A DNA stretch of 64,000 nucleotides from an uncultured Bacteroidia bacterium. Lineage in GTDB: Bacteria; Bacteroidota; Bacteroidia; Bacteroidales; UBA932. The stretch lies in the NCBI GenBank assembly GCA_902779765.1, contig CACZCQ010000001.1:1-64000 (forward strand), given 5' to 3'. The first letter of the stretch is position 1, and every line of letters starts with the position of its first letter. The position numbers were made by a program, and so were the translations under genes. Below are positions 28,915 to 52,787 of this stretch, in pieces. Under the pieces are notes generated by a model, which worked only from the letters and a program-made list of their open reading frames with translations, was not told where the DNA came from and ran no database searches.

Positions 28915-31362
28915 CTAGTTGTCGTTTATCCGTAAAGACAACTGTTGCAGATCTTCGTCGGAAGATGAGGATCCGACCATTATGGTGAAGTCTCCCGGTT
29001 CGACGGTCCATTCGTTATCCGCTCCGAAGCATTGAAGCATTTCGGGAGTGATTTGGAAGGTAACGTCCGTGCTTTCTCCGTTTTTCAGGAATATGCGTTT
29101 GAAGGCTTTGAGTTCCTTGACGGGACGGGTCACGGAGGCATATTCATCCCGGATGTACAGTTGTACCACTTCGGCGCCGTCGAAAGGTCCTTCGTTCGTA
29201 ATGCGTATTGATACCGTCGCTAAAGCCGGAGTGCCGGCTGAGTACGGCCTAAGCTCGGCGGCACGTCCGGATGTTTCGGAAGTCTCGGTAAGAACCGGTT
29301 CGGATAATACGAAATTACTATAACTCAAGCCAAAGCCGAAGGGCCAGAGGGGACCGGTCTCGTTGGTGGCGAAGAGGCGGGAATACTGGGAGTGCTTGTG
29401 GTTGTAGACCGTAGGCACCTGGCCGACGTTGCGGGGCATCGTGACGGGCAGCTTGCCGGATGGATTGACCTTGCCAGCAAGGACTTCGGCGACAGCCTGG
29501 CCGCCCATCTGGCCGGGTTCCCAGACGTTCAGTATCGCGTCCACGTTCTCCTTTGCCCAGGCTATGCTGTTAGCCCGTCCTGTCATCAGTACGAGTACGG
29601 TTGGCTTGCCTGTCGAGGCTACTGCTTCGAGAAGCTGTTCCTGCATTCCGGGGAGATCGAGGTCGTCACGGTCGCAATTCTCTCCGCAGGTGCGGCCGAA
29701 TGCCGAATACCTTTGAGAATTCTCTCCTGCGACGACGATGCAGACATCAGCTGCCGATGCTTTATGGCGGGCGATCGCTATACCTTTTGCGTCTATGTTG
29801 GAAATCTTTCCTCCGAAACACATCGTGTCTATCGTCACTTTCGGGAATTCTGCCTTGATTCCTTCCAGGACGGTCGTGACAAGCGAATCAGGCTGGGGGG
29901 CGGCCCAGTCGCCCAGAATGGTCTGGCTGTCCGCATTCGGTCCCAGAACGAAGATTCGTCGAATAGGCATGGCCGGCAGCATCTTTGGCTGTCCGACCGC
30001 CTCGCTCTGCTCGGCCCCACCGTTCGCTCTGCTCACGGTCCCCCCTCTAGTGCCGAGGGTGGCATTGGTCTTGCCAGCCAAAGCGCTGCCAGCCAAAGTG
30101 CTTTCGGTGCAGAGAGGAAGTATTCCATTATTCTTCAGAAGGATGATGCTTTCGCGGGCTGCGACGAGGGCAGTCTGGCGGTGTTCGGAGGCATTCTCGA
30201 GAGGGTCGAGGGAAGGCAGGGGAGCTTCGAAGAGGCCGACGGCGAACTTCATCTCGAGGATCTTTCCGGCAGCTTCGTCGATACGCTTCATCGGGATGCG
30301 TCCGGACTTGACTGCGTCGATCACGGCTTCGAAATAGTTGTCGCCCTGCATGTGCATGTCTATCCCTGCTTCAACCGACCTTACGAAGGCCTCGGTGGAA
30401 TCCGTAGCCCAGTGATGCATTGCATGCAGCCTTTCGATATCCATCCAGTCGCTGACCACGAATCCGTCGAAACCGAGTTCGTTACGGAGCAAATCCTTTA
30501 ATAACCAAGAGTTTCCGTGGCAAGGGATGCCGTTGACTTCGTTATGGGCGGCCATTACGGTGCCCACGTGGGCGTCCTGTACGGCGGCGATGAAAGGAGG
30601 CAGGTAGATTTCCCTGAGCTGCCTTTCGGACAGGTCCATAGGAGCGGCGTTGAGGCCACCGAAAGGTTCTCCGCCGGCAATGAGATGTTTGGCGCAGGCA
30701 ATCACGTGTCCTTCATCGAAATTCCGGTCAGGCCCCTGGAGGCCAAGGATGGAATGCTTCCCCATCTCGGTGACCAGGAAGGGGTCTTCCCCGTAGGTTT
30801 CTCCCATCCTGCCCCAGCGGGCATCCCGGGCGACGTCCAGGTTGGGAGCAAAAGTCCAATACAGGCCTTTCTGACGCATCTCGAGGGCTGTCTCAGCTCC
30901 TATCTTCTCCATCAATTCCGGGTCGAAAGTCGAAGCCATGTTGATGTTGGTAGGATATATGGTACATCCTTCGATCAGCGCGTTCCCGTGGATCGCGTCG
31001 ATTCCTATGAGAAGCGGGATTCCCAGCCTGCTTTCCCTGGCCATTTCCTGGAGGGCGATTGCCTCCTTGGTAGTCATGCAGTGGAGGAATGAACCTACTT
31101 CACCCCGGCGGATCCTGTCGGCCAGGCCCTTGTTGCCCAGGTTCTCGTCCGTGGCGTCTATATTCTTATAGGGCGATCCCTGTCCGGGAGGAACATAACA
31201 CGGAGCAACGTACTGGCACATCTGTCCGACCTTCTCTTCCAGGGTCATTTCCTTCAGCAGGAACTTTGCCCTGTCTGCGGCCGGCAGCGAAGCGTCCCGC
31301 CAGTCTCCCTTTCCGCAGGAGGCAGCCAGCAGGACGAGGCCGATGATTACAAATCTTCTCAT
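28915..31362 (-). CDS. GH3 beta-glycosidase lipoprotein (glucosidase/xylosidase class)
   Basis: 815 aa, lipobox LAASC at Cys16. The TIM barrel contains LLIGIDAIHG, FAPNLDVARDARWGRMGETYGED and the nucleophile motif VVSDWMDIERLH. The second alpha/beta domain has FVLGPNAD and VVAGENSQRYSAFG. The C-terminus is a fibronectin-III-like domain (DGAEVVQLYIRDEY, VTRPVKELKAF). It likely removes terminal beta-linked glucose or xylose. Two dispersed elements are inserted in frame: family C at residues ~424-463, between the barrel and the second domain, and a short family B copy at ~697-713 before the FnIII-like domain. Last gene of the left PUL arm, 18 bp after GH31. Confidence 0.85.
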   Translation of the reverse strand: MRRFVIIGLVLLAASCGKGDWRDASLPAADRAKFLLKEMTLEEKVGQMCQYVAPCYVPPGQGSPYKNIDATDENLGNKGLADRIRRGEVGSFLHCMTTKEAIALQEMARESRLGIPLLIGIDAIHGNALIEGCTIYPTNINMASTFDPELMEKIGAETALEMRQKGLYWTFAPNLDVARDARWGRMGETYGEDPFLVTEMGKHSILGLQGPDRNFDEGHVIACAKHLIAGGEPFGGLNAAPMDLSERQLREIYLPPFIAAVQDAHVGTVMAAHNEVNGIPCHGNSWLLKDLLRNELGFDGFVVSDWMDIERLHAMHHWATDSTEAFVRSVEAGIDMHMQGDNYFEAVIDAVKSGRIPMKRIDEAAGKILEMKFAVGLFEAPLPSLDPLENASEHRQTALVAARESIILLKNNGILPLCTESTLAGSALAGKTNATLGTRGGTVSRANGGAEQSEAVGQPKMLPAMPIRRIFVLGPNADSQTILGDWAAPQPDSLVTTVLEGIKAEFPKVTIDTMCFGGKISNIDAKGIAIARHKASAADVCIVVAGENSQRYSAFGRTCGENCDRDDLDLPGMQEQLLEAVASTGKPTVLVLMTGRANSIAWAKENVDAILNVWEPGQMGGQAVAEVLAGKVNPSGKLPVTMPRNVGQVPTVYNHKHSQYSRLFATNETGPLWPFGFGLSYSNFVLSEPVLTETSETSGRAAELRPYSAGTPALATVSIRITNEGPFDGAEVVQLYIRDEYASVTRPVKELKAFKRIFLKNGESTDVTFQITPEMLQCFGADNEWTVEPGDFTIMVGSSSSDEDLQQLSLRINDN
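29225..29270 (-). repeat. short 46-bp family B element in GH3
   Basis: It begins GCCGGAGTGCCGGC and keeps the block GGCTGAGTACGGCCTAAGC found in the 83-bp copies, but lacks about 37 internal bases. Its ends can still pair (CCGGAGTGCCG with CGGCACGTCCGG, one extra base). It is translated in frame as SGRAAELRPYSAGTPA. Confidence 0.7.
29975..30090 (-). repeat. family C element in GH3: conserved core between palindromic arms
   Basis: The core 29991-30070 is about 90% identical to 51906-51986 in a GH92 gene. The arms GGCAGCATCTTTGGCTG (29975-29991) and CAGCCAAAGCGCTGCC (30075-30090) are inverted copies of each other with small differences, and do not resemble the arms of the other copy. The right arm is extended by a 15-bp tandem duplication (30073-30102). 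Read in frame it encodes TLGTRGGTVSRANGGAEQSE. Confidence 0.8.
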
Positions 31363-31380
31363 ACTGATGACGCGGGATTC

Positions 31381-33861
31381 CTATTTGATGTCAATAACTA
31401 TCTTCTCGGAGACTTTGACCGGGTCAAGGCTGAACCTGATCATTCCGCCTTCGTAGGTCCATTCCTTCAGTTCCTTGCCGCCGACAAGCACCTGGGAGGC
31501 CTTACCGTCGTTCTGGACGGCGAATGAATATTCCCTAGTAGAGGGCATCCCTTCGAATTTTCCGGATACAGGGTTCACCACTATCCTCGAACTGCCGCCC
31601 TTCTCGTGGCATTCGACGAGGGTCTTGGCGATGGCACCTTTCTCGAATCCGTAGGTCTCTCCGTCGTCGTCCATCATGGTGAACTGCGAATCTCCGCAGG
31701 GATAGATGTTCAGGGTGACTTTCTCGAACGGCTTGCTGCCGAGATAGGCCACGTCTCCCTGGGTGGGGATTATGGCTCCCTCGCGGATGAACAGCAGCCC
31801 GGCGCGGTCGGCAGGATATTCACGGGTGAAGGTTTCGCCCTTGCTGACGATCCTCTCTCCGGTCCAGGCGTCAGTCCATGTGCCGGCGGGGAGGTATATC
31901 TCATTTGTGAATATGCCTACGCAGTACCACGGTCCGAACATGTACTGGTAGGTCATGTCGTCGCAGTTGCGGTCCTGAGGGAAGCTGAGCGGCATCGAAC
32001 GGACTATGGGCATACCGTCCTGGCTGGCTTCGAGCGCCATTGAATATATGTACGGCGCCAGGGAGTAACGAAGTTTTACGTAGAAGCGGTAGATGTCCTG
32101 CTCGGGCTTGTCATAGTAGAACGGCTGCATCATGGAGAACCAGCTGTTGATCTGGACCCAGGGCAGGAAAAGGCCGAAATGCAGGGAAGGCATCTCCAGG
32201 TCGCGAGGCACGCTCATCACGTCGCAGGAGGTGTTGAGGAAGCCGCTCATTCCCAGGTTGAGCTGGTCATAGAGGGCGGTCTTTCCACCTCCGTTGTCTC
32301 CGGAAGTGGAGGCCGTCCAGTGCTGGGTGCCTGACCAGCCGCCGCAGTAGTGGTGCCAGGTGCGCTTGTTGTTATAGTTCCTGCCGAGCTCTGCCATCTG
32401 CTTCGGGAGCAGTATCTGGTTGAGGTTGTGCATCACGGCATCGGTCTTTCCGTTGTAGTATGGCCAGTCGGGATGGTTGTCGATCGTACGGGCCGGGTCG
32501 AGCTTGAATCCTTCGACGCCCTGGTCCATGAAATTCTTCAGGTGGTCCATCCAGTGTTCCTGGCCGGAGGTGTCGCGTCCTTCCCGGAGTGCTACAAGGT
32601 CCTCTTCCACAAGGCTGAGGTCATATTCCTCGCAGAGCCATAGACCGAGATGGAAGCCCATCGAGCGGAGCTTGCCGATGAAGAGCCTGTGGTGGAGCTG
32701 CTTGGGATACTGGTCCTGGACCCAGTAGGGTTCGGGTGAGAAGCGGTCGTAATTCCAGCGCTTCTTCGTGGTGAAGTCGTAGCGCTTGGCCATCCACTGC
32801 GGCTCGAGCCAGAACACGTCGCAGGGAACGTCTATCTGGCGGAACATCGCGGCATCGTGCAGGATGTCGAACTGCTCCTCCCGCATGTTGGGACCGAAGC
32901 AGAGTCCGTAGGCCCACTTGGGGAGCACGTAGGTACGGCCCGTCACGAGGGTATATTCATTCAGGACGGCGGGCATGTCGGCTCCGGCCATCAGGAAGAA
33001 GTCGGCCTCGTCGTAGGAATTGACTATGTTGAATATGTCCTTGTCCACGCTTCCCACGTCGAAGAAACTCTTGCGGGTGGTGTTGTCGTAGATCCCCCAT
33101 CCGCGGGAACTCATCATGAAGGGCATCGGGATTTCCGTGTGCTGGTAGGTGGTCCACATCCTCAGGAGTTCGCCCCTGTGCTGGATGTGGTCGCGGCTGG
33201 TGCTTCCGCCTCCGTAGAACCTTTCACCGTCCTCCATCCGGATGGATATTGTGCAGATTTCAGCGGCTCCCGGGATCTCCCTCTTGTCCATCTTGGCGAA
33301 TTCCTTGTCGTCACCGATGATTCCTCCGCCGTTGCTCGTTACGTTGAGGTCTTCCCATTTCTTGTTGATGACCTGCCTGAGGTTGTCGCAGGTCTTGTCC
33401 TTGTTCCCCAGAAGCCTGATCTCGCGGATAACGGAGTTTCCACGTGCGTCCTTCAGCGAAATGACTCCGGTCTTCTTGTTGACGGTCAGTGAATATGCCT
33501 TCGTGCTGACCGTCCACTCGCTGCCTTTGGTGACCTCTGTGGTCTTCACCGGTGTCCAGTCAGTCTTGATGCAGCCGTAGCGCTCCATCAGGGACTCTTC
33601 GAACTCCTTTCTGGGAGAGATCCTGATCCGGAATATCCCCTCGTCGCAGACATCCACGCGGACCGTGTGACCGTCATTCAGCTTGAAGGTCTTATTATCA
33701 ATGGCTTCAGCAGCCGGACGGCTGTCCGGGCCCGGCCGAGTCCATCCTCGCTCCGCTGCGGCTGAGTACGGCCTAAGCCCGGCAGCCGCTCCGGCAGTGG
33801 TCAATGCAAAAGTGGAAATACTTACAACTAGACATGCAAATGATACCAAGAATTTTTTCAT
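31381..33861 (-). CDS. GH31 alpha-glycosidase
   Basis: 826 aa with signal peptide MKKFLVSFACLVVSISTFA. An N-terminal beta domain is followed by a barrel with PKWAYGLCFGPNMREE, the likely nucleophile Asp in GVEGFKLDPAR and the acid/base Asp in STSGDNGG. The C-terminal domains include LPAGTWTDAWTGE. Family members cut alpha-glucose, alpha-xylose or alpha-galactose; the exact one is not evident. Residues ~22-50, just after the signal peptide, are a translated 83-bp family B element. It lies 15 bp after GH28 and 18 bp before GH3 in the minus-strand PUL. Confidence 0.85.
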   Translation of the reverse strand: MKKFLVSFACLVVSISTFALTTAGAAAGLRPYSAAAERGWTRPGPDSRPAAEAIDNKTFKLNDGHTVRVDVCDEGIFRIRISPRKEFEESLMERYGCIKTDWTPVKTTEVTKGSEWTVSTKAYSLTVNKKTGVISLKDARGNSVIREIRLLGNKDKTCDNLRQVINKKWEDLNVTSNGGGIIGDDKEFAKMDKREIPGAAEICTISIRMEDGERFYGGGSTSRDHIQHRGELLRMWTTYQHTEIPMPFMMSSRGWGIYDNTTRKSFFDVGSVDKDIFNIVNSYDEADFFLMAGADMPAVLNEYTLVTGRTYVLPKWAYGLCFGPNMREEQFDILHDAAMFRQIDVPCDVFWLEPQWMAKRYDFTTKKRWNYDRFSPEPYWVQDQYPKQLHHRLFIGKLRSMGFHLGLWLCEEYDLSLVEEDLVALREGRDTSGQEHWMDHLKNFMDQGVEGFKLDPARTIDNHPDWPYYNGKTDAVMHNLNQILLPKQMAELGRNYNNKRTWHHYCGGWSGTQHWTASTSGDNGGGKTALYDQLNLGMSGFLNTSCDVMSVPRDLEMPSLHFGLFLPWVQINSWFSMMQPFYYDKPEQDIYRFYVKLRYSLAPYIYSMALEASQDGMPIVRSMPLSFPQDRNCDDMTYQYMFGPWYCVGIFTNEIYLPAGTWTDAWTGERIVSKGETFTREYPADRAGLLFIREGAIIPTQGDVAYLGSKPFEKVTLNIYPCGDSQFTMMDDDGETYGFEKGAIAKTLVECHEKGGSSRIVVNPVSGKFEGMPSTREYSFAVQNDGKASQVLVGGKELKEWTYEGGMIRFSLDPVKVSEKIVIDIK
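33713..33795 (+). repeat. 83-bp family B element in GH31, inverted relative to the GH95 copy
   Basis: Same length as the copy at 26189-26271, with ~47 central bases identical in reverse complement. The ends are GCCGGACGGCTG and CAGCCGCTCCGGC; compared with the GH95 copy both ends changed together so that they still pair. The host gene is on the minus strand in both cases, so the element is translated from opposite strands: here as [18 protein letters not shown] and onward. Confidence 0.8.
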
Positions 33862-33876
33862 ATCGTGTATTTCTGA

Positions 33877-35337
33877 TTATCTGACATTCCGTTTTACTAC
33901 CTGCTTCTTTCCTTTGGCGGAAGGTTCGTCGGTCCTGAGGTCCTTCATCACTAGCCCCTGGACGTCATCGGCTACGATGGCAGGCCTGTAATCCTTCTTT
34001 CCGGCAACCAGACGCACGTTCTCGAGGGTTATCCCGTTGGCGTGGCGGATGAAGAGTCCCCAGGCGGGAAGCTCCTTGAACTGTGAGAACTCCGGATAGA
34101 TGTCGATCATCTCAGGTATGCTGTCAAGTTCCTCGGGGGAGGTTCCGCGGTAGGCGTACAGCTTGTTGCCGCCTCCGGGATAGACGATTTCCACATTCCT
34201 GAGGGTTATGTTCTCTACCGGCATCCCGGGTATGCCGACGATTCCGGCAGGGGAGACGTTCCTTGGCAGGTCTTCGACCGGTCCTTCATAGCTGTAGCCT
34301 GCGTCGGCCTTCTCCAGAGGCACTTCGACCCTGATGTTGGACAGGGTGATATTCCGGAGATATCCTTCCTTGGCTCCGCCCCATCTCTTGCCGGTCCTCA
34401 GATAGATGGCATTGCCTGTGTTGACGGCATCGAGGCTGTCAATGACTATGTTCTCCACTTCCGCACCGTCCACGGACTGGATCGTAACCGCCGAACGGTA
34501 GGTGTCGAACACCTTGTTGTCGATGATCCGGATATCCTTGAATCCGCCCCTCGAAACTGTTCCGAACTTGAATGCGCTTGCGCTTGAACGCGCCACGCAG
34601 TTACGTACCTCGATGTCTTCGCAGAGATGGGCTGCGGAATGGGACTTGAAACAGATTGCATCGTCGGAAGCATCTATGAATGAGTCCTTTATCAAGGCGT
34701 GGCGGCAGTCCACGATGTCGATACCGTCGTTGTTCCAGTAGTTCTTGCTGTCCAGCAGGATCTCGCTGATCGTCAGGTTCTCGCACTGGTCGGGGACGAG
34801 GGTCCATTCGGCTGAATTCCGGAGATTCACTCCTTCGATCACCACATCCTTGCACTCGCGGAAGTAAATGAGTTTCGGCCTTTTGGTGACCCTGTCGTAC
34901 TTGGTCGTGTCATCCATGAATCCGAGATGGACCTGGTTCAGGAAGTTGAGGGCACATTCCGCTCCGCGGCCGTCTATGACTCCCTTGCCTTTGACCGAAA
35001 TGTTTTCCTGGCCTTTGGCAAGTATGAGGCCGTAGTTCCCTTCGACCATCTCGTAGTCGTAAGGATTGACCGAACCGACCAGAACGGCACCTTCCAGCAG
35101 CCTCAGTTCGACATTCGACTTCATGAATATGCTGCCGGTCAGGTAGCGTCCCACGGAGATTTCCAGGACACCTCCGCCGTGACTGCTGATGAAATCGATG
35201 GCGGCCTGGATAGACCTGGTGTTGAGGGTGATGCCGTCGGACTTGATGCCGAAAGAAGAAGCCTGGTAGACCTGTGCCCTGAGGGAGAAGGATAGGGCTA
35301 GGACTGCCAGGATGGTTGCGAGCAGATATTTCTTCAT
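33877..35337 (-). CDS. GH28 polygalacturonase-family enzyme
   Basis: 486 aa from MKKYLLATILAVLALSFSLRA; an in-frame ATG six codons upstream overlaps the previous stop as ATGA. Beta-helix repeats, NNDGIDI and ASDDAICFKS supply the GH28 acids; the GHG position reads SAFKFGT. It is a clear paralogue of the GH28 at 11564-13063 and of the N-terminus of the truncated protein at 13060-13638. It acts on a galacturonan or rhamnogalacturonan backbone or side chain. Part of the minus-strand PUL between the CxxCH propeller gene and GH31. Confidence 0.85.
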   Translation of the reverse strand: MKKYLLATILAVLALSFSLRAQVYQASSFGIKSDGITLNTRSIQAAIDFISSHGGGVLEISVGRYLTGSIFMKSNVELRLLEGAVLVGSVNPYDYEMVEGNYGLILAKGQENISVKGKGVIDGRGAECALNFLNQVHLGFMDDTTKYDRVTKRPKLIYFRECKDVVIEGVNLRNSAEWTLVPDQCENLTISEILLDSKNYWNNDGIDIVDCRHALIKDSFIDASDDAICFKSHSAAHLCEDIEVRNCVARSSASAFKFGTVSRGGFKDIRIIDNKVFDTYRSAVTIQSVDGAEVENIVIDSLDAVNTGNAIYLRTGKRWGGAKEGYLRNITLSNIRVEVPLEKADAGYSYEGPVEDLPRNVSPAGIVGIPGMPVENITLRNVEIVYPGGGNKLYAYRGTSPEELDSIPEMIDIYPEFSQFKELPAWGLFIRHANGITLENVRLVAGKKDYRPAIVADDVQGLVMKDLRTDEPSAKGKKQVVKRNVR

Positions 35338-35351
35338 ATCAAGTATGTTAT

Positions 35352-36812
35352 TCATTTCACTTTCACATCCGTTCCCGGAGATTTCCGCAGGACGTCAGTC
35401 AGCTTTCTTTTACTTATTTCTACCTTACCCGTCGTGAATGCAGGAAGGTTGTAGGAACTCATCAAACTCTTGTAATACTTACCGGGACTTTTCTGGGGGA
35501 GAAGGAACGGTTTCGATGCGTTCCCGTCATCGTCAATGTGGGTGAAGTAAGGCTTCGTGTAAAGCCCGTCATCCCTGCGGCTGCTGAAGACCATCCACCT
35601 GCCGTCTGAACTCCAGGTGTGGAAACTGTCCACGTCGTCGGAATTGGCGTTTCCCATCGGGCGGACCGAACAGTCCGTCAGGTCCACCAGCCAGAGATCG
35701 GCATCCTTGTGCCAGATGGAGAAGTTGCCGAAGCCGTGGCGGGTGAAGCAGAGGAACCTTCCGTCCGGGGAAATCCGGGGGAACGAAACGCTTGCGCTGT
35801 CGGAAGGAGCGTCATAGATGCACTCCAGGGAGTCGCCGAAACTCATGTCCTTCTCGTCGAACGCAATCCTGTACAGTCCGTAACGTACTTCGCGGTGCTT
35901 GTCAGGCATAGGGGCAACCGCTTCGGCGGAACAGAAATACAGCCATTTTCCGTCTGGGGAGAAGGTAGGGAAGGTCTCGAACCGGTCCTCGGACTTGGTC
36001 AGCGGCGACCAGGCTATCTCGTGAGTCCTTACATTGTATACCACCACGTCGGAGGCCTGGTCGTAGACCTCTATCCTGTTGGGGTCGTGGTTGTAGAAAG
36101 CCTGCAGGGTCTTGTTGACTGAAAAGGCCACAAATTCCCCGGAAGGATGCCAATAAGGATAGACAAGGGCGCTGATCGTGGAGTCGGTCTTGGTGTTGAG
36201 TTTCTCGACTTCGCCTTCGTTGACCATCACCGTGCCTCCGAAGGTCGCCCTGGCGTGGAAGACCATCTTGGAAGGGTCGCCGTTGCGGTATGTGTGGCAG
36301 TTGAGGCAGTTGCCTCCCGTAAGGTCGTTCGTCAGGATGGCCTTTTCCGAATATGTCTCCAGATTCCGTTGATATATTCCCATCTTCTGCCAGCCCTGGT
36401 AACCCGGAGGAATGAGGCGGTAAGAGAACCACGGGTCAATCCGGTCGGATGAGACAAAGATATTGAAAGGCTTGTAAGAAATCCACCTGCCGTCCTTTTT
36501 CTCAAATACGGTCAGGGCTACCGCTTCCCCGTCCGTACAGTTTGAAACGAGTCTTTTCCAGTTCCGTTTACCGAATCTGAAAACTCCGTGACGGGCGCGG
36601 ATCAGCCTGTCTCCTGCAAGCAGGACGCTCTTTCCCTCCCCGAGGAAGGAGAAGTTCAGGGGAGCGATGTTGGCCGGAATGGTAACCTCTTTATAATCAG
36701 GGAATATGGGAGCTTCTTCACCTGATGGTGAAGCGCCTTCCGGCTTGCCGGAACAAGAAACGATCACCAGCAGGCAGACAAGGAGTGAAAATGGTATTGA
36801 AATCCTGTTCAT
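35352..36812 (-). CDS. PD40/TolB-like propeller lipoprotein with a CxxCH haem-binding motif
   Basis: 486 aa, lipobox VIVSC at Cys20. Residues 169-173 read CLNCH inside GGNCLNCHTYRNGD, a c-type haem motif. Later repeats YPYWHPSGEFVAFSVN, FPTFSPDGKWLYFCS, FPRISPDGRFLCFTRHG and FHTWSSDGRWMVFSSRR are PD40 propeller blades. It may be a one-haem lipoprotein that binds glycan or protein in the periplasm or at the surface. CxxCH could also be structural or metal-binding; nothing else here makes cytochrome c. It follows DUF6057 by 13 bp within the PUL operon. Confidence 0.75.
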   Translation of the reverse strand: MNRISIPFSLLVCLLVIVSCSGKPEGASPSGEEAPIFPDYKEVTIPANIAPLNFSFLGEGKSVLLAGDRLIRARHGVFRFGKRNWKRLVSNCTDGEAVALTVFEKKDGRWISYKPFNIFVSSDRIDPWFSYRLIPPGYQGWQKMGIYQRNLETYSEKAILTNDLTGGNCLNCHTYRNGDPSKMVFHARATFGGTVMVNEGEVEKLNTKTDSTISALVYPYWHPSGEFVAFSVNKTLQAFYNHDPNRIEVYDQASDVVVYNVRTHEIAWSPLTKSEDRFETFPTFSPDGKWLYFCSAEAVAPMPDKHREVRYGLYRIAFDEKDMSFGDSLECIYDAPSDSASVSFPRISPDGRFLCFTRHGFGNFSIWHKDADLWLVDLTDCSVRPMGNANSDDVDSFHTWSSDGRWMVFSSRRDDGLYTKPYFTHIDDDGNASKPFLLPQKSPGKYYKSLMSSYNLPAFTTGKVEISKRKLTDVLRKSPGTDVKVK

Positions 36813-36825
36813 AATACTTGTTCCG

Positions 36826-44475: not shown

Positions 44476-44569
44476 TCCGATGTTCGACTCAAATTGGGTC
44501 GGGGCAAATGTTTGTTTTTGTGTAAAAAATTATTATCAAAACAGGGCAAATCAGTCATAATTATTTATT

Positions 44570-44582
44570 AAACAAGTCATTT
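44570..44582 (+). promoter_or_regulatory. shared susC leader motif AAACAAGTCATTT, right copy
   Basis: Exact counterpart of 44329-44341, 44 bases upstream of the right susC ATG. Confidence 0.55.
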
Positions 44583-44626
44583 TGCAATCAATCAGGAAGT
44601 TATAAACCATTTTAATTCTTCTGTTT

Positions 44627-47600
44627 ATGAGTAAACGTTTCATTACGGCTTTGTTTGCGCTTCTAATCGTGGGAGTGCAGGCATTTGCCCAGTCTGCCGT
44701 TTCCGGAAAGGTCACGGATCAGTCTGGGGAACCTCTTGTCGGAGTGAATGTCCTTGTAAAGGGCACCACTAACGGCACAATGACGGACCTTGACGGAAAT
44801 TATAGCCTGCCTAGTGTAAGGCAGGGAGCTGTCCTGGTCTTCTCTAGTATCGGCTATTCGACTCAGGAAGTCGCTGTTGGAAATCAGAGGACGGTCAATG
44901 TCCAGCTGAAAGACGACGCTGCTTTCCTTGATGAAGTCGTGGTGGTCGGTTACGGTACAGCCCGCAAGAAGGATGTTTCCGGAGCAATTGCCAGTGTCAA
45001 CTATGGCAATGACAAGAACATCTCGGCCCTGCCTAACCCGAACGCCCTCGCCGCACTGTCCAGCAAAGTGGCTGGTTTGAGCTATGCTCCTACAACCAGC
45101 GCCGCTGGTGACAACACCTCCACGATGACCATCCGTGGTAAGAACGCCATTCCTACCGGTGGTTCCATGTCCGCATCCGCACAGAGCGTCAACCAGCCTC
45201 TGCTCGTCATCGACGGTGTCCTCTCCTACGGTTCGATCAACTCGATCAACACCGCTGACATCGAGAGCATCGACGTCCTTAAGGACGCTTCCGCAGCTGC
45301 TATCTACGGATCCCGTGCTGCTAACGGTGTCATCATCATCACAACCAAGAAGGGAACCAGCTCAGCTCCCGTCGTGAACTTCAACGGCAGCGTCAGCCTT
45401 TCCGACTGGACCCGCATGCCCAAGATGGTTACTGACAAGGAGACCTTCCTCAAGAACCGCTTCTACAGCAAGAAGGGATCAAAGGATACTTATTTCAAAG
45501 ACAAGGAATGGAACTATTCAAGCCTTGACCAGGCGGCCAACGACAACCTCCTTGGAGCCCGCGAGCTCGAGGCCTGGAGGGATGGCCAGTGGGTCAACTG
45601 GATCGATGAGATCTCCCGCAAGGGTGTCGGCCAGAAATACGACATGTCCATCAGCGGACGTTCCGACCGTGTCAACTACTATGTTTCCGGTGACTACACC
45701 CGTCAGCAGGGTATCCGCAAGGGTGATGACTATGAGAAGGCCGGTGCAATGGGTAAGATGGACTTCAACGTCACCGACTGGCTGACCATCGGTGTGAAGG
45801 CCAACTTCCTTTCATCCAACAGCTGGGGCCAGAGCGCCAACATCCGCTATGCGATGTGGTACACCCCTCTGTCATATGTCTATGCTCGTCAGGAAGGATT
45901 CGAGAACTGGTACAACAGTGTTCCTGACAACAATACCGCCAGCCCGTTCATCGGTACCGGTGAGAATGACTCCTACGCTTACACCGACCGCCGCAGCAAG
46001 AGCATGAACGTCAACGGTGTCGCCTATGCGCAGATCAACTTCCCGTTCATTCCGGGACTGAGCTACAAGGTGACCTTCCAGGGACAGCGCAATGCCGGCT
46101 ACGGTGATGTATATAACAAGCCCGAGATGTCTGTCAATACTGAGGATATCACCCAGATGCAGAATCCCGGCCAGTTCTGCGGCAACGTTACCGGTAGCAT
46201 TTCCGCTTCCAACTACGGTGCCTGGAACATAGACCAGATCCTTACCTACAGCAAGGACTTCGGTCTCAACCACGTCGACCTGACCGCCGGTTACACCCGT
46301 GAGTCTACCAACAGCAACTCATTGGGAACCAATTTCACCGGTTATCCTACTCCTACTTCCCTTGGAGTTTACAATATCGAGGCTGCCAACTCGGTTACCG
46401 AGACCTACCGTAACCGTACGCAGACCCAGTCCGTCGGTTATCTCGCCCGTGTCAACTACAACTGGGCCAACAAGTATTACCTCACCGGTAACTTCCGTCG
46501 TGACGGTTTCTCCGCTTTCGCTGTCGGTCACAAGTGGGGTAACTTCTACGGAGCATCTGCCGCTTGGGTAGTCTCCAATGAGGAATTCATGAAGGATGGT
46601 CCTTTCGATTTCCTGAAGGTCCGTCTCTCCTGGGGACAGAACGGTTCCCGTAACATCTCTGCCGGAGCAACCCAGGCTACCGTCGGCAAGTCCACCGGTA
46701 ACAGTGGTGCCAACACCATGACCTGGCTGGGTGACGTAAGTACCCTTGGTATGGCTCTCAACAACCTGCCTAACAGGAACCTGACCTGGGCAACCGTCGA
46801 GAAGATGAACCTCGGTATCGACTTCGCATTGGTCGACAACCGCATCAACGGTAGCATCGATGCCTACACCGGCCGCACTACGAATATGCTCGTAGCCCGT
46901 TCGGCTCCCTACATCTCCGGTTTCACAGATGTCAATGACAATGTAGGTCTCGTGACCAACAAGGGTATCGAGGTCGTCCTCAACACCGTCAACATCAATG
47001 GTAACGGTGCTGATTCCTTCCGTTGGGAGAGCAACATCGTATTCGACGCAAACCGCAACAAACTCGTCTCCCTCTTCGGTCCCGACTATGAGGGCAATGA
47101 GGCCGACGATGTCGCGAACGCTGTCGCCTACGGTCGTGAAGCCAACTATGCACTGCTCGTCGGAAGACCGATCGGTGCTGCTTACGATGTCAAGCTTCTC
47201 GGTATCTTCAAGGATGAAGCCGAAATCAAGGCTCATGGTGTCCAGCCCGATGCAGAGCCCGGTGACCTCAAGTTCGAGGACTTCAACAACGATGGTGTAA
47301 TTGACGCAAAAGACCGTCAGTACATCGGTTCCCCGGATCCTCTCTTCACCGTGAACTTCGCCAACACCCTTGCATGGAAGAACTTCAGCCTGTATTTCAA
47401 CCTCCGTTGGGGACAGGGTGACAAGACCCACTTCATCTGGCTCGATCCCTATGCATTCAACCCCAACATGGGCGGTGGTGCCCAGCTCGCACGCGTAAAG
47501 CCTTGGACCAAGGATAATCCTTCCCAGACCTTCGCCCGTTACGGATACACCAACACCATGGACTACCAGTACTGGAACAGCCGTACCTACCTGAAGTTGA

Positions 47601-47830
47601 AAGACCTTGTCTTCTCCTACACTGTCCCGGCCACTCTGATCAAGCGTTCCGGCATCAGCAACCTCCGTTGCTATGTTGCAGCCACCGACTTGATTACCCT
47701 CACCAACTGGTCCGGTATCGATCCTGAAACCGGCGGTACCATTGCAGCAGGAGCGAGCTCAAGCCGCTTCGGCAGCAACGGAGCCTACAAGACGGTCACC
47801 TTCGGTGTCAACCTTACCTTCTCGAAATAA
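44627..47830 (+). CDS. SusC/RagA-family TonB-dependent glycan importer (right pair)
   Basis: 1067 aa with the same domain order as its divergent paralogue: signal peptide MSKRFITALFALLIVGVQAFA, carboxypeptidase-D-like domain, TonB-box region DEVVVVGYG, plug and barrel ending TFGVNLTFSK. Most of the sequence aligns with the left copy, with differences clustered in barrel and loop regions, for example the first extracellular loops (SKKGSKDTYF versus SQKGIENVNF). The two importers probably take up related but distinct oligosaccharides. It is followed after 31 bp by its susD. Confidence 0.92.
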   Translation: MSKRFITALFALLIVGVQAFAQSAVSGKVTDQSGEPLVGVNVLVKGTTNGTMTDLDGNYSLPSVRQGAVLVFSSIGYSTQEVAVGNQRTVNVQLKDDAAFLDEVVVVGYGTARKKDVSGAIASVNYGNDKNISALPNPNALAALSSKVAGLSYAPTTSAAGDNTSTMTIRGKNAIPTGGSMSASAQSVNQPLLVIDGVLSYGSINSINTADIESIDVLKDASAAAIYGSRAANGVIIITTKKGTSSAPVVNFNGSVSLSDWTRMPKMVTDKETFLKNRFYSKKGSKDTYFKDKEWNYSSLDQAANDNLLGARELEAWRDGQWVNWIDEISRKGVGQKYDMSISGRSDRVNYYVSGDYTRQQGIRKGDDYEKAGAMGKMDFNVTDWLTIGVKANFLSSNSWGQSANIRYAMWYTPLSYVYARQEGFENWYNSVPDNNTASPFIGTGENDSYAYTDRRSKSMNVNGVAYAQINFPFIPGLSYKVTFQGQRNAGYGDVYNKPEMSVNTEDITQMQNPGQFCGNVTGSISASNYGAWNIDQILTYSKDFGLNHVDLTAGYTRESTNSNSLGTNFTGYPTPTSLGVYNIEAANSVTETYRNRTQTQSVGYLARVNYNWANKYYLTGNFRRDGFSAFAVGHKWGNFYGASAAWVVSNEEFMKDGPFDFLKVRLSWGQNGSRNISAGATQATVGKSTGNSGANTMTWLGDVSTLGMALNNLPNRNLTWATVEKMNLGIDFALVDNRINGSIDAYTGRTTNMLVARSAPYISGFTDVNDNVGLVTNKGIEVVLNTVNINGNGADSFRWESNIVFDANRNKLVSLFGPDYEGNEADDVANAVAYGREANYALLVGRPIGAAYDVKLLGIFKDEAEIKAHGVQPDAEPGDLKFEDFNNDGVIDAKDRQYIGSPDPLFTVNFANTLAWKNFSLYFNLRWGQGDKTHFIWLDPYAFNPNMGGGAQLARVKPWTKDNPSQTFARYGYTNTMDYQYWNSRTYLKLKDLVFSYTVPATLIKRSGISNLRCYVAATDLITLTNWSGIDPETGGTIAAGASSSRFGSNGAYKTVTFGVNLTFSK
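44693..44799 (+). repeat. right arm of the inverted repeat within the two susC genes
   Basis: Reverse-complement match to 44114-44220 with one mismatch in 107 bases. A further long identical run of about 75 bp occurs in the plug region near 45265-45340 and its counterpart near 43575-43650. Confidence 0.85.
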
Positions 47831-47861
47831 GGTCCGTCAAACAATTTAATATATGAGAGAT

Positions 47862-49895
47862 ATGAAAAAATACATATTCATCCTTCTGGCGCTTGTTCTC
47901 GCCGTTTCCTGCAACGACGAAGCCTTCCTTGAAGAGAAGACTTACAACGACGACACCAGCAGTTTCTTCAAGAACCAGCAGTCCATCGAGATTGCCCTGG
48001 CCTCCGCTTATTCCAACATCCAGTACATGGTGTTCGGAAACCAGCGTGGTGGTTCTGAGCACAACTGGATGCTCTTCGGTATGGGTCTTGACACCTTCGC
48101 ACCTACCGGTGGCAACACCCACTTCTCCAACTGGTCTACCCTGACTTCGGACAGTGGTTATGCCCGTCACTATGGTGACTATATGTACAAACTCGCCAAC
48201 CGTGCCAACACTGTTGTCGATATGATTGACGAGCATCCTGAGATCGAGTATCAGGGAGCCAATGTCAAGGAGAATCTCCGTGCTGAGGCCGTGTTCCTCC
48301 GCGCTTGGGCCTACCGTGTCCTCGCCGGCATGTTCGGAAGCTTTGTGTATGCCGATCATATGACCACTGAGGCCACATACGGCTATGAGATGATATCCCG
48401 CGAAGAAGGTTGGGAGCGTCTTGCCGAAGACTTCGAGTATGCAGAGCAGAACCTCCCTGCAAAGGCCCGTCTGATGGGTACCGTCACCAAGGCAGCTGCT
48501 GCCCACTACCTTTCCGAAATCTACCTTTCCCTTGGTAGGTTCGCAGATGCCGAGGCTGCTGCCAGCCGCGTCATCAACGGACAGGATGGTGACTACCACA
48601 TCATGACCACCCGTTTCGGAAACCGCAAGGACCAGGCTGTCGACCGCTATGGCAACTCCCTCGCAGCACCTCAGGGCGCTTATTGGGACCTCTTCCGTTC
48701 ATCAGCAAAGACTGACGGAAAGTTTGCCAGCGATTCCAACCCTAACGATCCTGAGAACAAGGAGGCTATCTGGGTAGCCCAGATCGACTACACTCCCGGT
48801 GTTGACAACTGGCCTCTCGGAGGTTCAGGTGACTCCTGGTGGCGTATGCACGTTCCCGTTCTCGAGTCTACCTGGGCTCCTTGGATCCCTATGGGCGGAA
48901 AGAATGGTACCCGTGTCAATAAGGATGGTGAAAAATTCTATGTATTCACCGCTGACGCTACCTGCTTCCCTGAGGGTGTAAAACCTGCAGGTGCAGGAAC
49001 TCCTGCCGCTGATATTCCTGAGGCCCAGGGCCGTATGCTTGCTTACAGCCTTTCAACCCGTATGGATTCCCTGGCCTGCCGTGCACAGGGTAACGGTGCC
49101 GCTACCTCCCTCGGTCTCCTGGCATCCGAATTCGTGGTACGCCCTGCAGGCGATATCCTCGGTTCATACTGGGACGATCCTAATGACTTCCGTGGAAGCG
49201 AGATCATGATCCAGCGTGATTACTTCACTCCTTCCGGAAAGAAGTGGTCCGTGGTCAAGCAGGAAATCAAGGACAGGATTGCCGCCCATCCTGGTGACAA
49301 TGCTTATGTCCTTGCTGCTTCTGATACTACCAATATCACTCCTCGCTATTGGAAGTTCTCCGATGACAAGCACATCATCGACAACAACAACTGCTACTAC
49401 GATACCGACTGGTACATGATCCGTCTTGCAGAGACCTACCTGCTCCGCGCAGAGGCACGTCTTGCCCAGGGCAACAAGTCCGGTGCAGCGGAAGATATCA
49501 ACGTCCTCCGCAGCCGTGCAGGTGCAAGGCCTTGCTCCGCAGCCGATATCGACATCGACTACATCCTCGATGAGCGTGTCCGCGAGCTCTTCGGTGAGGA
49601 GCAGCGCTGGGTAACCCTCAGCCGTCTGTCCTGCAACCCGAAGGCTACCTACGTTCTTGACAAGTATCCTACCCAGGATGCCACTACTTCGAACACCCTG
49701 TACGAGCGCACCCGCAAGTACGGTTACGGATATGAGAACGAGGACCGCGGCCGTGAGGCTTACACCGACGCTATGGGCAATACCCGCCACCGTCCGAACA
49801 TCAAGCCTTACAACTACGTACTTCCTATTCCTATCCAGATCATCCAGTCCAACAAGGATGTGGAGATTCCTCAGAATCCTGGATACGGCAAATAA
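47862..49895 (+). CDS. SusD/RagB-family surface glycan-binding lipoprotein (right pair)
   Basis: 677 aa from MKKYIFILLALVLAVSC (lipobox AVSC); an ATG three codons earlier (47853) is an equally possible start. It shares the SusD features of the left copy: YMYKLANRANTVVDMIDEH, TKAAAAHYLSEIYLSLGRF, NRKDQAVDRYGNSLAAPQGA, AETYLLRAEARLAQGNKSG, DERVRELFGEEQRWVTLSRL. It binds glycan at the cell surface and lids the right SusC. A strong terminator follows the stop. Confidence 0.9.
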   Translation: MKKYIFILLALVLAVSCNDEAFLEEKTYNDDTSSFFKNQQSIEIALASAYSNIQYMVFGNQRGGSEHNWMLFGMGLDTFAPTGGNTHFSNWSTLTSDSGYARHYGDYMYKLANRANTVVDMIDEHPEIEYQGANVKENLRAEAVFLRAWAYRVLAGMFGSFVYADHMTTEATYGYEMISREEGWERLAEDFEYAEQNLPAKARLMGTVTKAAAAHYLSEIYLSLGRFADAEAAASRVINGQDGDYHIMTTRFGNRKDQAVDRYGNSLAAPQGAYWDLFRSSAKTDGKFASDSNPNDPENKEAIWVAQIDYTPGVDNWPLGGSGDSWWRMHVPVLESTWAPWIPMGGKNGTRVNKDGEKFYVFTADATCFPEGVKPAGAGTPAADIPEAQGRMLAYSLSTRMDSLACRAQGNGAATSLGLLASEFVVRPAGDILGSYWDDPNDFRGSEIMIQRDYFTPSGKKWSVVKQEIKDRIAAHPGDNAYVLAASDTTNITPRYWKFSDDKHIIDNNNCYYDTDWYMIRLAETYLLRAEARLAQGNKSGAAEDINVLRSRAGARPCSAADIDIDYILDERVRELFGEEQRWVTLSRLSCNPKATYVLDKYPTQDATTSNTLYERTRKYGYGYENEDRGREAYTDAMGNTRHRPNIKPYNYVLPIPIQIIQSNKDVEIPQNPGYGK

Positions 49896-49913
49896 TGGTT
49901 TGATGCCTTTTCC

Positions 49914-49950
49914 AAGGGTCGGTCCCACGAAGGGGACCGACCCTTTTTTA
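49914..49950 (+). terminator. intrinsic terminator after the right susD
   Basis: GGGTCGGTCCC and GGGACCGACCC form a perfect 11-bp stem with loop ACGAAG, followed by TTTTTT. It lies 19 bases after the susD stop and 26 bases before the small lipoprotein gene, the same arrangement as on the left arm. Confidence 0.9.
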
Positions 49951-49975
49951 AGACCTTCGAATATCCTGTAATGAA

Positions 49976-50425
49976 ATGATAATCAAGAATATCTCATATT
50001 ATTTCCACCTTATTGCCTTGATTCTTTTGGCATCCTGCTCATCCTCTCCTGAAGGACTTGGGAAAATGGCCATGAAAAGGCTGCCTGATGCTCTGGAAAA
50101 GGCGATGGAAGATCAGATGTCCGTCAAGGGAGGCGCCAGGATACAATCCCCGGAAATCATTTTCGATTGCGACAGCCTATGTATAATCCATTTCCAGGCA
50201 GTGGCCAAGGATCCTTCCGGCAAGGAATACAGTTTCCCTGTCCGGTATGTCTTTGTCCGCGATGCATTCATGAGTGCTGCCGAAGGCCATCCTGTATATT
50301 CGGAGTTGGTGACAGGAAGTCCTACGATGGATAGCAGCGAGGTGGAAAAACTGAAGGAGTATTGCCGCGAGCACAGTGATGAACTTTATGTCCATTATGC
50401 CGGGGCGGCGAATCCTATCCCTTGA
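49976..50425 (+). CDS. small lipoprotein downstream of SusD, paralogue of 38520-38966
   Basis: 149 aa, lipobox LLASC at Cys21. FDCDSLCIIHFQAVAKDPSG, RYVFVRDAFM and GHPVYSE match the left-arm protein in the same order; the N- and C-terminal thirds differ. No known domain is recognised. It lies after a terminator, so it is either made by read-through or from an unrecognised weak promoter. Its 3' end overlaps the convergent GH92 gene by 11 bp. Retention in both copies of the SusCD module suggests a real role. Confidence 0.8.
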   Translation: MIIKNISYYFHLIALILLASCSSSPEGLGKMAMKRLPDALEKAMEDQMSVKGGARIQSPEIIFDCDSLCIIHFQAVAKDPSGKEYSFPVRYVFVRDAFMSAAEGHPVYSELVTGSPTMDSSEVEKLKEYCREHSDELYVHYAGAANPIP

Positions 50426-52787
50426 AAGCTCTCCTGACTGGCTTGCGGGACATTTCGAAGTGGAGGGTCGCTCCGTCCTTGATGTCCTCGTAATTGATGA
50501 AAGGATGGTCGAGTTTCTTTCCGTTGAGGTAAGCTGCCTTGATATACACGGCATCCTCGCTCCAGCCCTTCGTGGTCATCTTGACTGTCTTTCCGTTTGA
50601 CAGGGTGACGGTCATTCCGGGGACGCAGGGGGAGCCGATATAATACCAGTCTGCTCCGGGGCAGAAAGGATAGAATCCGAGGCAGTTGAACAGGTACCAG
50701 GCGCTCATCTGGCCGCAATCGTCGTTGCCGCTCAGTGAGCCGGGCTCATTACCGTAGTAATTCTTTGCAACATAGCGGACCCATTTCTGGCAGTTCCAGG
50801 GTTCTCCGAAATAATCATAGAGGTAAGCTACATGGTGGCAGGGCTCGTTGCCGTGCCAGTAACCTCCTATGCGGCCCCAGATGTCGTGGGCGCCGGGGAT
50901 GTCTTCCGGAAGCTCGATCGTGAAGAGTTCGTCGAGATATTTCTTCAGCCTGTCGCGTCCCGCCAGCTGGACATAACCGTCCATGTCGTGGAAGACGCTC
51001 CAGGTGTACTGCATCGTGAAGCCTTCGGTGATGTCTCCCCAACCGTTGACGGAGCCGGGGCCCTGATAGGCTATCGGGGCGAATGGAGTACGCCATTCTC
51101 CCTTTGAATCCCTGCCCCTCATATAGCCGGTCTCCGGGTCGACCAGGTTCTTGTAGTTCATCGACCGGTTGAGGAAGAACTGATAGTCTTTCTCATGTCC
51201 CAACTTCTTCGCGACCTGGGCGATGCACCAGTCGTCGTAGGCATATTCAAGGGTCTTGGAAACGCTCTCCTTCTCGAGGTCGAAGGGAACGTAGCCGAGG
51301 GAGGTATATTCAGGGATGCAGTCATAGTGGGCGTTGGTGGCCGTGGTCTTCATCGCCTGGAAGGCACGTTCGTAGTCGAATCCGGGGACGTCCTTGAGGA
51401 TCATGTCGGCAAGGATGGAGCAGGAGTGGAAACCTATCATGCACCAGGTCTCGCCGCCGTAGAATGACCAGTAGGGGAGCATGTGCTCGGCGCTCTTGTC
51501 ATAGTGGGCGAGCATCGAATTGGCTATGTCGGCCTGCAGGGGGCGGTTGACCAGGTTCATCAGAGGTTCGAACGCCCTGAAGGTGTCCCAGAAAGAGAAA
51601 GTCGTCACGTTAGTGAATCCTTCCGCCTTGCCGATGGTGCCGTCGTGCTCACGGAACCTTCCATCGGCGTCCTGGAACAGGAAAGGATGCTGCATGGTGC
51701 GGTACACGCTGGTGTAGAATGTCTCCCTGAGAACCTTGTCGTCAGTGTCCAATGAATATGTTCCCAGAGCCTTCTCCCAGGTGTTCTCTGCCTCAGCCAG
51801 GACGGTATTGAAGTCCTTTCCGTCCAGTTCCTTCAGGTTCAGCAACGCCCCGTCCGTCCCGACTCCAGAGATGGCTACCTTGACTTGCACTTGGAACTGT
51901 TGCCGGTCGGACGCCTCGCTCCGCTCGGCCCCACCGTTCGCCTTGCTCACGGTCCCCCCTCTTACAGTGCCGAGGGTGGCATGGTCCTCCCCGGCAACAG
52001 TTCCAACTGCCGCAAATTCTTTGCGTGCAGCAAAAGGCGACGACTGGCCGTCGAAGCGGACTATGACCTTGAGCTTGCGGCCCCAGGCCTCGAGGGAACT
52101 GCGGAACCGCTTTGTGTTGTATATTACAGGCTCGCCTTCCTGGAGGATCGTGAAATCCTTGACCGGCTCGGAGAAGCGGGCGGCGAAATAGACGTAGCGG
52201 CTAGGATTCCAGCCTTTGACCAGCTTGCTGCCTATGATGGTATGGTCATCGAGAAGACGGACGTCGGACCATTCACAGTTCCAGTACAGGGTGTGGTCTA
52301 GATCTATCATCACGGTCGCATTCTCCTTGTCCGGATAGGTGAACCTGAACATTCCCGAACGCATCGCGGCCGTCATCTCAGCCTTTACACCGCTGTCCAG
52401 CATCAGGCTGTAGTAACCGGGATGTGCGCTTTCCTTCCCGTGGTCAAGCGCGGAAGGCTTCGGGTCCTGGCTTGTTCCCGGCAGGAACAGGAAATCACCC
52501 AGATCAGGGATTCCAGTACCGCTGAGGTGTGTCAGACTGAATCCCTGGACGGTCGGTTTGGAATATTTGTATCCTGCGGCGCAGTCATAGTCCTTGTCGT
52601 CGCAGTCCGGGCTAATCTGGATCCCGCCGTAAGGTAGCTGCGGTCCCGGATACACGTTCCCGAACCCATCCGTCCCCACGAACACGTTCACGTCGTGGAT
52701 AAGCTTTTTGTTATCATTGGAAGCAAATGATAATGAAGTGGTTAAGAGAATAAGGGCCGAAACGGCGAGACCTTTAAGAATATTCAT
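50415..52787 (-). CDS. GH92 alpha-mannosidase (first copy)
   Basis: 790 aa with signal peptide MNILKGLAVSALILLTTSLSFA. GH92 hallmarks: VFVGTDGFGNVYPGPQLPYGG, GFSLTHLSGTG, WDTFRAFEPL, the acid Glu in HGNEPCHHVAY and the base Asp in GNDDCGQMSAW. The family consists of calcium-dependent exo-alpha-mannosidases. Residues ~260-300 are a translated family C element with palindromic arms, in the N-terminal beta-sandwich region. Promoter TATCTTTG lies 21 bases upstream. Confidence 0.85.
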   Translation of the reverse strand: MNILKGLAVSALILLTTSLSFASNDNKKLIHDVNVFVGTDGFGNVYPGPQLPYGGIQISPDCDDKDYDCAAGYKYSKPTVQGFSLTHLSGTGIPDLGDFLFLPGTSQDPKPSALDHGKESAHPGYYSLMLDSGVKAEMTAAMRSGMFRFTYPDKENATVMIDLDHTLYWNCEWSDVRLLDDHTIIGSKLVKGWNPSRYVYFAARFSEPVKDFTILQEGEPVIYNTKRFRSSLEAWGRKLKVIVRFDGQSSPFAARKEFAAVGTVAGEDHATLGTVRGGTVSKANGGAERSEASDRQQFQVQVKVAISGVGTDGALLNLKELDGKDFNTVLAEAENTWEKALGTYSLDTDDKVLRETFYTSVYRTMQHPFLFQDADGRFREHDGTIGKAEGFTNVTTFSFWDTFRAFEPLMNLVNRPLQADIANSMLAHYDKSAEHMLPYWSFYGGETWCMIGFHSCSILADMILKDVPGFDYERAFQAMKTTATNAHYDCIPEYTSLGYVPFDLEKESVSKTLEYAYDDWCIAQVAKKLGHEKDYQFFLNRSMNYKNLVDPETGYMRGRDSKGEWRTPFAPIAYQGPGSVNGWGDITEGFTMQYTWSVFHDMDGYVQLAGRDRLKKYLDELFTIELPEDIPGAHDIWGRIGGYWHGNEPCHHVAYLYDYFGEPWNCQKWVRYVAKNYYGNEPGSLSGNDDCGQMSAWYLFNCLGFYPFCPGADWYYIGSPCVPGMTVTLSNGKTVKMTTKGWSEDAVYIKAAYLNGKKLDHPFINYEDIKDGATLHFEMSRKPVRRAFKG
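51888..52009 (-). repeat. family C element in GH92: conserved core between palindromic arms
   Basis: Arms 51888-51906 and 51991-52009 are inverted copies of 19 bp with one mismatch (centre GGAACTGTTGCCGG). The core 51906-51986 matches the GH3 copy (29991-30070) at about 90%, but the arms do not resemble the GH3 arms. In frame it reads TLGTVRGGTVSKANGGAERS. Confidence 0.8.

What the first reader, a model, noticed from the sequence alone, without database searches (positions are those of the whole stretch)
29975..52009. Dispersed element with a conserved ~80-bp core but unrelated palindromic arms at each site
Copies in GH3 (29975-30090) and GH92 (51888-52009) share a ~90% identical core. Each is bracketed by near-perfect inverted arms (16-19 bp), but the arms differ entirely between copies (GGCAGC..TTTGGCTG versus GGAACTGTTGCCGG). 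The stem is therefore kept while its sequence is site-specific. Possible reasons are insertion into existing hairpins, inverted duplication of target DNA on insertion, or coevolution of arms by hairpin-templated correction. Both are translated in frame (RGGTVS.ANGGAE). I know of no described element with this property.
Basis: partly seen in the sequence, partly recalled or inferred. Interest (0 to 1): 0.8.

Follow-up and report, generated by a model that had tools for sequence, protein, structure and literature searches.

The report
Hairpin repeat with site-specific paired arms
A family of short hairpin-shaped DNA repeats sits inside working genes of gut bacteria; each copy has its own stem sequence, and when one side of a stem changes the other side usually changes to match, which makes it possible to test how DNA keeps such hairpins paired.

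Summary
I compiled 165 non-identical copies (a sample, not a census) assigned to 33 gut Bacteroidales genomes. Each is a core of about 80 nt bracketed by arms of about 30 nt. Own arms pair far better than arms swapped between copies (median score 39.5 against 14; 140 of 154 above the 99th percentile), although arms differ between sites. Copies in long reading frames are in frame in either orientation (93 of 104). The element resembles Rickettsia palindromic elements, but its stem does not decay. At orthologous insertions 101 stem positions changed on both sides and stayed paired (7.5 expected), 33 on one side only (190 expected). The core is inverted in 63 of 141 orthologous-site pairs. Stems inside the core also switch as units. 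How it moves is unknown: no target duplication in general, no linked Y1 transposase. Inverted target duplication and insertion into ready-made hairpins are less likely but not excluded.

The parts
29970..30095 (-). Copy 1 of the palindromic element, inside the GH3 gene, read in frame (TLAGSALAGKTNATLGTRGGTVSRANGGAEQSEAVGQPKMLPAMP)
29970..29991 (-). Arm of copy 1 (GGCAGCATCTTTGGCTG and outward extension)
30075..30095 (-). Opposite arm of copy 1 (CAGCCAAAGCGCTGCC and outward extension)
29992..30074 (-). Core and inner stem of copy 1 (limits approximate), subtype CAAT/TAG
28915..31362 (-). Host gene: glycoside hydrolase family 3, 815 aa, frame open through the element
51891..52006 (-). Copy 2 of the element, inside the GH92 gene, read in frame (VGTVAGEDHATLGTVRGGTVSKANGGAERSEASDRQQFQ)
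51891..51906 (-). Arm of copy 2 (TTGGAACTGTTGCCGG), perfect 16-bp stem with 51991-52006
51991..52006 (-). Opposite arm of copy 2 (CCGGCAACAGTTCCAA)
51907..51990 (-). Core and inner stem of copy 2 (limits approximate), subtype CCAT/TGTAAG
50415..52787 (-). Host gene: glycoside hydrolase family 92, 790 aa, frame open through the element; orthologue L101 carries the element at the same site

Best explanation
A dispersed, apparently non-autonomous palindromic repeat of about 145 nt that works like Rickettsia palindromic elements: it settles between genes or, in frame and in either orientation, in tolerant loops of proteins. The arms belong to the element and arrive with it. After and between insertions the arm sequence drifts, but the stem stays paired because DNA polymerase, stalling in the hairpin, switches template and copies one arm (or one inner stem) from the other. 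The same process inverts the core. Shown here: the family, the pairing, the coupled changes, the inversions, the in-frame rule, and unoccupied sites without arms. Inferred: template switching as the cause, and that mobility is supplied by something else in the cell.
For: Own-arm against cross-copy pairing 39.5 against 14 (the swaps include some orthologues, which makes the control harsher). Thirty same-orientation orthologous pairs (one gave no shared column), 610 stem columns: 456 unchanged, 101 changed on both sides and still paired (7.5 expected), 33 on one side (190 expected), 20 otherwise (expectations use the change rate of the same data). Pairing over a fixed 24-nt stretch stays 0.81-0.85 whether arms differ by 3% or 55%; independent drift would take it from 0.97 to 0.55. 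Five RsmF orthologues: 94.8% of cells paired, at most 57.8% when slid, 8 pairs with both-side changes, no pair varying on one side only. Window copy 2 and its orthologue L101 differ by a compensated pair, TTGCC/GGCAA against TCGCC/GGCGA. A 2-nt core stem occurs as seven complementary types, 149 of 153 scorable copies. Core 4-mer GAGC (90) or its perfect-palindrome version TCGC (12), no intermediate TAGC or GCGC among 105 copies with this hairpin form. Core flipped in 63 of 141 orthologous-site pairs. On the coding strand G.T mismatches (28) are not commoner than A.C (34), so there is no sign that mRNA folding keeps the stems in genes. Template switching is known to homogenise inverted-repeat arms and invert spacers in coding genes (PMC8604942, passages).
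Against: In 72 non-coding copies G.T mismatches outnumber A.C on the element strand, 41 to 20, as RNA-level selection would give. Arms were paired by an aligner that favours pairs, and orthologous pairs are not independent. L101 also has a one-sided change beside its compensated one (CCGG to TCGG). In one search one of five measures, further pair types, was reached by 46 of 500 shuffles. Fourteen of 154 copies do not exceed the 99th percentile of swapped arms. Some orthologous sites carry arms so different that re-insertion at a hotspot is possible. Core subtype goes with genome: cores at different loci of one genome are as alike (0.884) as orthologous cores (0.888), which needs recent spread or core conversion besides. 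The mobilising enzyme is not identified.
Confidence: 0.6

Rival explanations
1. The stems are kept by selection on a folded nucleic acid (the mobile RNA or single-stranded DNA form, or a structured leader RNA between genes), so compensatory substitutions are selected rather than templated.
For: Several helices covary while ACCCTC and most of GGGGGGACCG are constant in the 20 aligned copies; G.T exceeds A.C on the element strand in non-coding copies, 41 to 20.
Against: No G.T excess on the coding strand (28 against 34); no one-sided standard pair in RsmF nor in inner-stem columns 35-38 of the 20-copy set, though outer-arm columns there do show some; copies with very different arms pair as well as near-identical ones.
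Confidence: 0.2
2. Each insertion duplicates a stretch of target DNA in inverted orientation, so one arm is old host sequence and the other its new copy.
For: RsmF: unoccupied G078 reads TCGTCAGACCTGAAC, occupied G057 has TCAGACC..core..GGTCTGACCTGAAC, so the last 6-7 nt on one side look like an inverted copy of host. In 12 young copies with distinct outer arms (of 26 sharing the inner arm), the next 9 nt differ by site yet pair at 0.75-1.0, against 0.20-0.76 between copies. At TrmO one arm resembles relative G064 weakly.
Against: Both arms are absent at PurD in G017, G057 and G020 (G059 has a longer, different loop) and, by eye, in one relative or more at the L229, L097-1701, L121, L217 and L147 sites; four of those 9 positions stay 0.59-0.70 identical between copies, as an element-owned arm would; G078 may be a secondary loss.
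Confidence: 0.11
3. The core inserts into loops of hairpins that already exist.
For: Coreless hairpins lie at orthologous sites: G057 TrmO CTTCTGCCAG-A-CTGGCAGAAG; G064 at the L147 site and G079 at the L131 site.
Against: TrmO is explained by deletion between the 7-nt repeat CTGCCAG present in G078; other relatives show no hairpin at their sites; one-armed remnants also occur (G064 OAT; G078 at the L136 site). The other two coreless hairpins were not explained in this way.
Confidence: 0.06
4. Ordinary transposition of several old MITE subfamilies, each with fixed terminal repeats; arm diversity is only subfamily structure.
For: Inner-arm subfamilies exist.
Against: No excess of target duplication (mean 3.32 against 3.23); arms at one and the same insertion covary between species; Y1 transposases show no relation; other transposases were not sought.
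Confidence: 0.03

Closest known systems
Rickettsia palindromic elements (RPE; also Wolbachia, recalled)
   Same: Hairpin repeats of about 150 bp inserted in frame into unrelated metabolic genes and translated (PMC10969869, passages)
   Different: Different phylum; sequence kinship not tested. RPE repeats are reported to lose identity with time (PMC6649704 passage citing Claverie and Ogata), whereas these stems stay paired and change jointly; the core inverts.
Template-switch (quasipalindrome) mutation
   Same: Homogenises arms, makes multinucleotide changes, inverts spacers, also in coding genes (PMC8604942, passages; PMC8794818, start of abstract in listing only)
   Different: Described for scattered native inverted repeats; here it would act recurrently on a dispersed family with a core of about 80 nt, against spacer inversions of 2-5 substitutions in the yeast study.
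Coding palindromes of Nematomorpha mitochondria
   Same: Perfect inverted repeats in coding sequence, translated, thought to be actively kept (PMC6649704, start of abstract and passages)
   Different: In mitochondria, within native genes; I saw no mention of a shared core in the passages read.
Bacterial MITEs and REP/REPIN repeats
   Same: Short, non-autonomous, palindromic, dispersed (recalled; PMC3733652 start of abstract for REP size)
   Different: Those have conserved ends, often target duplications, and (REP) a 20-40-nt palindrome mostly outside genes; the features tested here were not met or inconclusive.

Membership tests
Rickettsia palindromic elements | Palindromic repeat of about 100-150 nt | tested here: met
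   Arms about 30 nt around a core
Rickettsia palindromic elements | In-frame insertion into unrelated protein genes | tested here: met
   93 of 104 long-ORF copies in two fixed phases (59 forward, 34 reverse)
Rickettsia palindromic elements | Sequence homology to a described RPE family | not tested
   No RPE sequence was compared; Rfam had no match around copy 1
Rickettsia palindromic elements | Repeat identity decays with time (reported property) | tested here: not met
   Pairing 0.81-0.85 at all arm divergences
MITE | Terminal inverted repeats conserved between copies | tested here: not met
   Identity between left arms 0.26-0.45 beyond 6 nt from the core
MITE | Target-site duplication | tested here: not met
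   Direct repeats 3.32 nt against 3.23 in cross control; single sites such as RsmF L107 show one by eye
MITE | Related autonomous transposon | tested here: inconclusive
   Only Y1 transposases were sought; present in 43 of 61 genomes over cut-off, without visible relation to core number
REP/REPIN with RAYT | Extragenic 20-40-nt tagged palindrome with a linked RAYT | tested here: not met
   93 of 165 copies classed as coding; no visible relation to PF01797; the REP tag itself was not searched
Template-switch correction | Coordinated multi-base changes that perfect a palindrome, without intermediates | tested here: met
   GAGC 90, TCGC 12, intermediates 0 of 105 copies with this hairpin form; 101 double against 33 single changes
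Template-switch correction | Spacer inversion between arms | tested here: met
   63 of 141 orthologous-site pairs flipped
Template-switch correction | Event seen on a known lineage | not testable with these tools
   One genome per species; no strain series

The most novel reading that the evidence does not exclude
A mobile element recognised and propagated by shape, not end sequence: at each insertion a fixed length (about 30 nt) of stem is written anew by copying one strand from the other, partly from the target, so every copy gets its own terminal repeats while only the core is inherited.
Probability: 0.18. Interest if true: 0.88.

Novelty: new variant of a known kind. Interest (0 to 1): 0.62.

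Why it matters
It gives some three dozen site groups shared between genomes (35), many in the reading frames of housekeeping genes, in which palindrome arms change together. That makes the question whether stems are kept paired by selection or by template switching directly testable in bacteria. It also suggests RPE-like protein-inserting repeats in a second phylum and a way in which proteins gain, flip and lose some 45 residues.

Tried and rejected
Known RNA family: no Rfam match around copy 1. Element on viruses or plasmids: no exact pattern match in viral contigs, no blastn match in plasmids. Target-site duplication: no excess. Y1 transposase as partner: no visible relation to core number. 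Intrinsic terminators: non-coding copies have T-rich left and A-rich right flanks, the wrong polarity. mRNA folding as the keeper of stems in genes: no G.T excess. The neighbouring GH92 paralogue (35% identity) was too distant to place the insertion, and the other window ORFs compared with the GH3 gene gave no hit. IspH and ALDH empty sites were mostly not usable (IspH 7 of 10 and ALDH 3 of 7 not found). In one search many orthologue loci gave 'noflank'; I did not establish why for each. Unoccupied sites were judged by eye from the alignments printed. Copies dropped before counts: 163 to 154 for lack of flanks or the GGTGGG motif; the recompiled set of 165 already excludes such copies; 12 of 165 were not scorable for the 2-nt stem and 60 not of the 3' hairpin form counted. 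Papers on similar elements; one RPE paper was not held. So 'not described' means only not found in those seven searches.

Full report
WHAT IS THERE. The two window copies are real. Both lie on the minus strand inside open, in-frame genes, GH3 and GH92. A blastn search of the assembly with copy 1 gave 18 places (the weakest at E 0.3); a core consensus gave 18 with one place not in the first list, so 19 places in all. The genus is probably Cryptobacteroides; that is recollection, not a test.

ANATOMY. I compiled 163 and, after refetching, 165 non-identical copies, assigned to 33 genomes by handle and contig prefix. Outward from the GCC that opens the core, pairing is 0.48-0.84 over the inner part (an inner bulge), 0.90-0.98 from about 14 to 23 nt, 0.82-0.88 to about 28 nt, and falls to 0.16 by 34 nt (median outer end 33, quartiles 30 and 34). 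Left arms of different copies agree at only 0.26-0.45 beyond the first six positions, and near 0.25, the random level, past 33 nt. Own arms score 39.5 at the median, swapped arms 14; 140 of 154 own pairs exceed the 99th percentile of 3000 swaps. Arms of copies in genes are not wholly random; G is frequent at several positions three apart and there is a loose peptide consensus.

IN FRAME BOTH WAYS. Of 104 copies lying in long ORFs, 93 are in exactly two phases, 59 forward (ATLGT..GGT..ERSEA) and 34 reverse (ASLRSAPPLAS..PVPPLNVPRV). Hosts include GH3, GH92, methionyl-tRNA formyltransferase, an ornithine-type aminotransferase, RsmF, KsgA, PurD, IspE, an aldehyde dehydrogenase and a lipoyl acyltransferase (names by my reading of the sequences except GH3 and GH92, which Pfam named). 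A mostly non-coding type is 4 nt shorter in its 3' core hairpin (counted by eye).

DO ARMS COME WITH THE ELEMENT? At PurD four relatives lack the core; G017, G057 and G020 lack both arms as well, and G059 has a longer, different loop. By eye, unoccupied relatives at the L229, L097-1701, L121, L217 and L147 sites also lack both arms, sometimes with further host sequence missing, and RsmF in G078 lacks all but the outermost 6-8 nt. Against this, G078 at the L136 site and G064 at OAT keep one arm, and coreless hairpins stand at three sites. The TrmO one is exactly what deletion between the 7-nt repeat CTGCCAG in G078 would leave. I read all of these as decay products; without a rooted tree the direction is inferred.

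STEMS CHANGE TOGETHER. At orthologous insertions in the same orientation, with left arms 60-95% identical (30 pairs, one without shared columns; 610 stem columns), 101 columns changed on both sides and stayed paired against 7.5 expected if sides drifted alone, 33 changed on one side against 190 expected, and 20 fell in neither class. Pairing does not fall with arm divergence. In five RsmF orthologues 94.8% of cells pair, none of 500 shuffles reaches this, slid versions reach at most 57.8%, and no pair varies on one side only; one measure, further pair types, was reached by 46 of 500 shuffles, and the structure was drawn by me on one row. Window copy 2 shows the pattern in one step: its orthologue L101 has TCGCC/GGCGA where the window has TTGCC/GGCAA; next to it L101 also has a one-sided change, CCGG to TCGG. 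All these counts rest on alignments that favour pairing, and the pairs share history.

THE CORE DOES IT TOO. The two bases before T-GCC-ACCCTC-GGC and their partners occur as AC/GT, CA/TG, GC/GC, CG/CG, CC/GG, TC/GA and TG/CA, complementary in 149 of 153 scorable copies; 12 of 165 were not scorable. The 3' core hairpin, in the 105 copies of this form, has GAGC in 90, the perfect-palindrome TCGC in 12, three single variants, and no TAGC or GCGC; its closing pair is C-G or T-A in 101 of 102. In 20 diverse copies 18 of 31 consensus pairs show changes on both sides, and the inner stem (columns 35-38 with 121-124) is paired in 20 of 20 without a one-sided change; outer-arm columns were broken in 4-7 of the 20 rows each in that automatic alignment.

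INVERSION. In 63 of 141 pairs with both flanks orthologous the core is flipped against the host, for example RsmF in G017 against RUG579 at 91.8% flank identity. Some of these pairs may be separate insertions at one hotspot, since arms there range from near-identical to near the unrelated level. Because the element is open in both orientations, flips are tolerated in genes.

MECHANISM. Template switching predicts all three: arms kept equal, blocks of change without intermediates, and spacer inversion; the yeast study describes these consequences in coding genes (PMC8604942, passages). mRNA-level selection predicts wobble pairs on the coding strand; G.T is 28 and A.C 34. Non-coding copies do show more G.T than A.C, 41 to 20, so RNA selection may add to it there. 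Two things stay unexplained: how copies move (no general target duplication; Y1 transposases unrelated; no match in the viral and plasmid collections searched), and why core subtype follows genome (cores at different loci of one genome 0.884, orthologous 0.888, unrelated 0.843). In 6 of 41 orthologous pairs with the same outer arm the core subtype differs, one of the six by a single base and two sharing one site, as if cores were replaced inside standing arms.

PLACE AMONG KNOWN THINGS. It works like a Rickettsia palindromic element. I do not file it as one: kinship was not tested, and the reported decay of repeat identity is not met. It fails the features of MITEs and REPs that I could decide. 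Hence: a new variant of a known kind, with an unusual property worth an experiment.

Noticed in passing
L006 (KsgA, G000:C8) and L065 (OAT, G057:C1): A second in-frame repeat family (peptides like STPLHPQGGLRGVPLRH and SGSLRGTPLSPPSGVQGGERPDQG) occupies genes also used by this element; at OAT it sits at the same alignment position in G057.
   Followed up: no
L018, G000:C9:5209-5243: A short-core version (GCCACCCTCGGCTCGTTAAGGAGGGGACC) also bracketed by paired arms (by eye).
   Followed up: no
L138 near 7884 (rc), CAMNAD010000064.1: Core copies appear in close tandem, about 100 nt apart, with a different middle part.
   Followed up: no
L131 (G057:C7 upstream of a gnd-like gene): A core with an unrelated longer middle part; the same intergenic place holds different elements in G000 and G078 and a coreless palindrome in G079.
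   Followed up: partly
L274 and L288: Another hairpin repeat (CCGGACTCCTCGC...GTCCGGACTCG) seems to occupy places where relatives carry this element.
   Followed up: no
non-coding copies, all loci: Flanks are T-rich before and A-rich after the element, the opposite of a terminator. Of 72 non-coding copies, 27 have an ATG-led ORF within 90 nt downstream on the element strand and 23 on the other (9 in both).
   Followed up: partly
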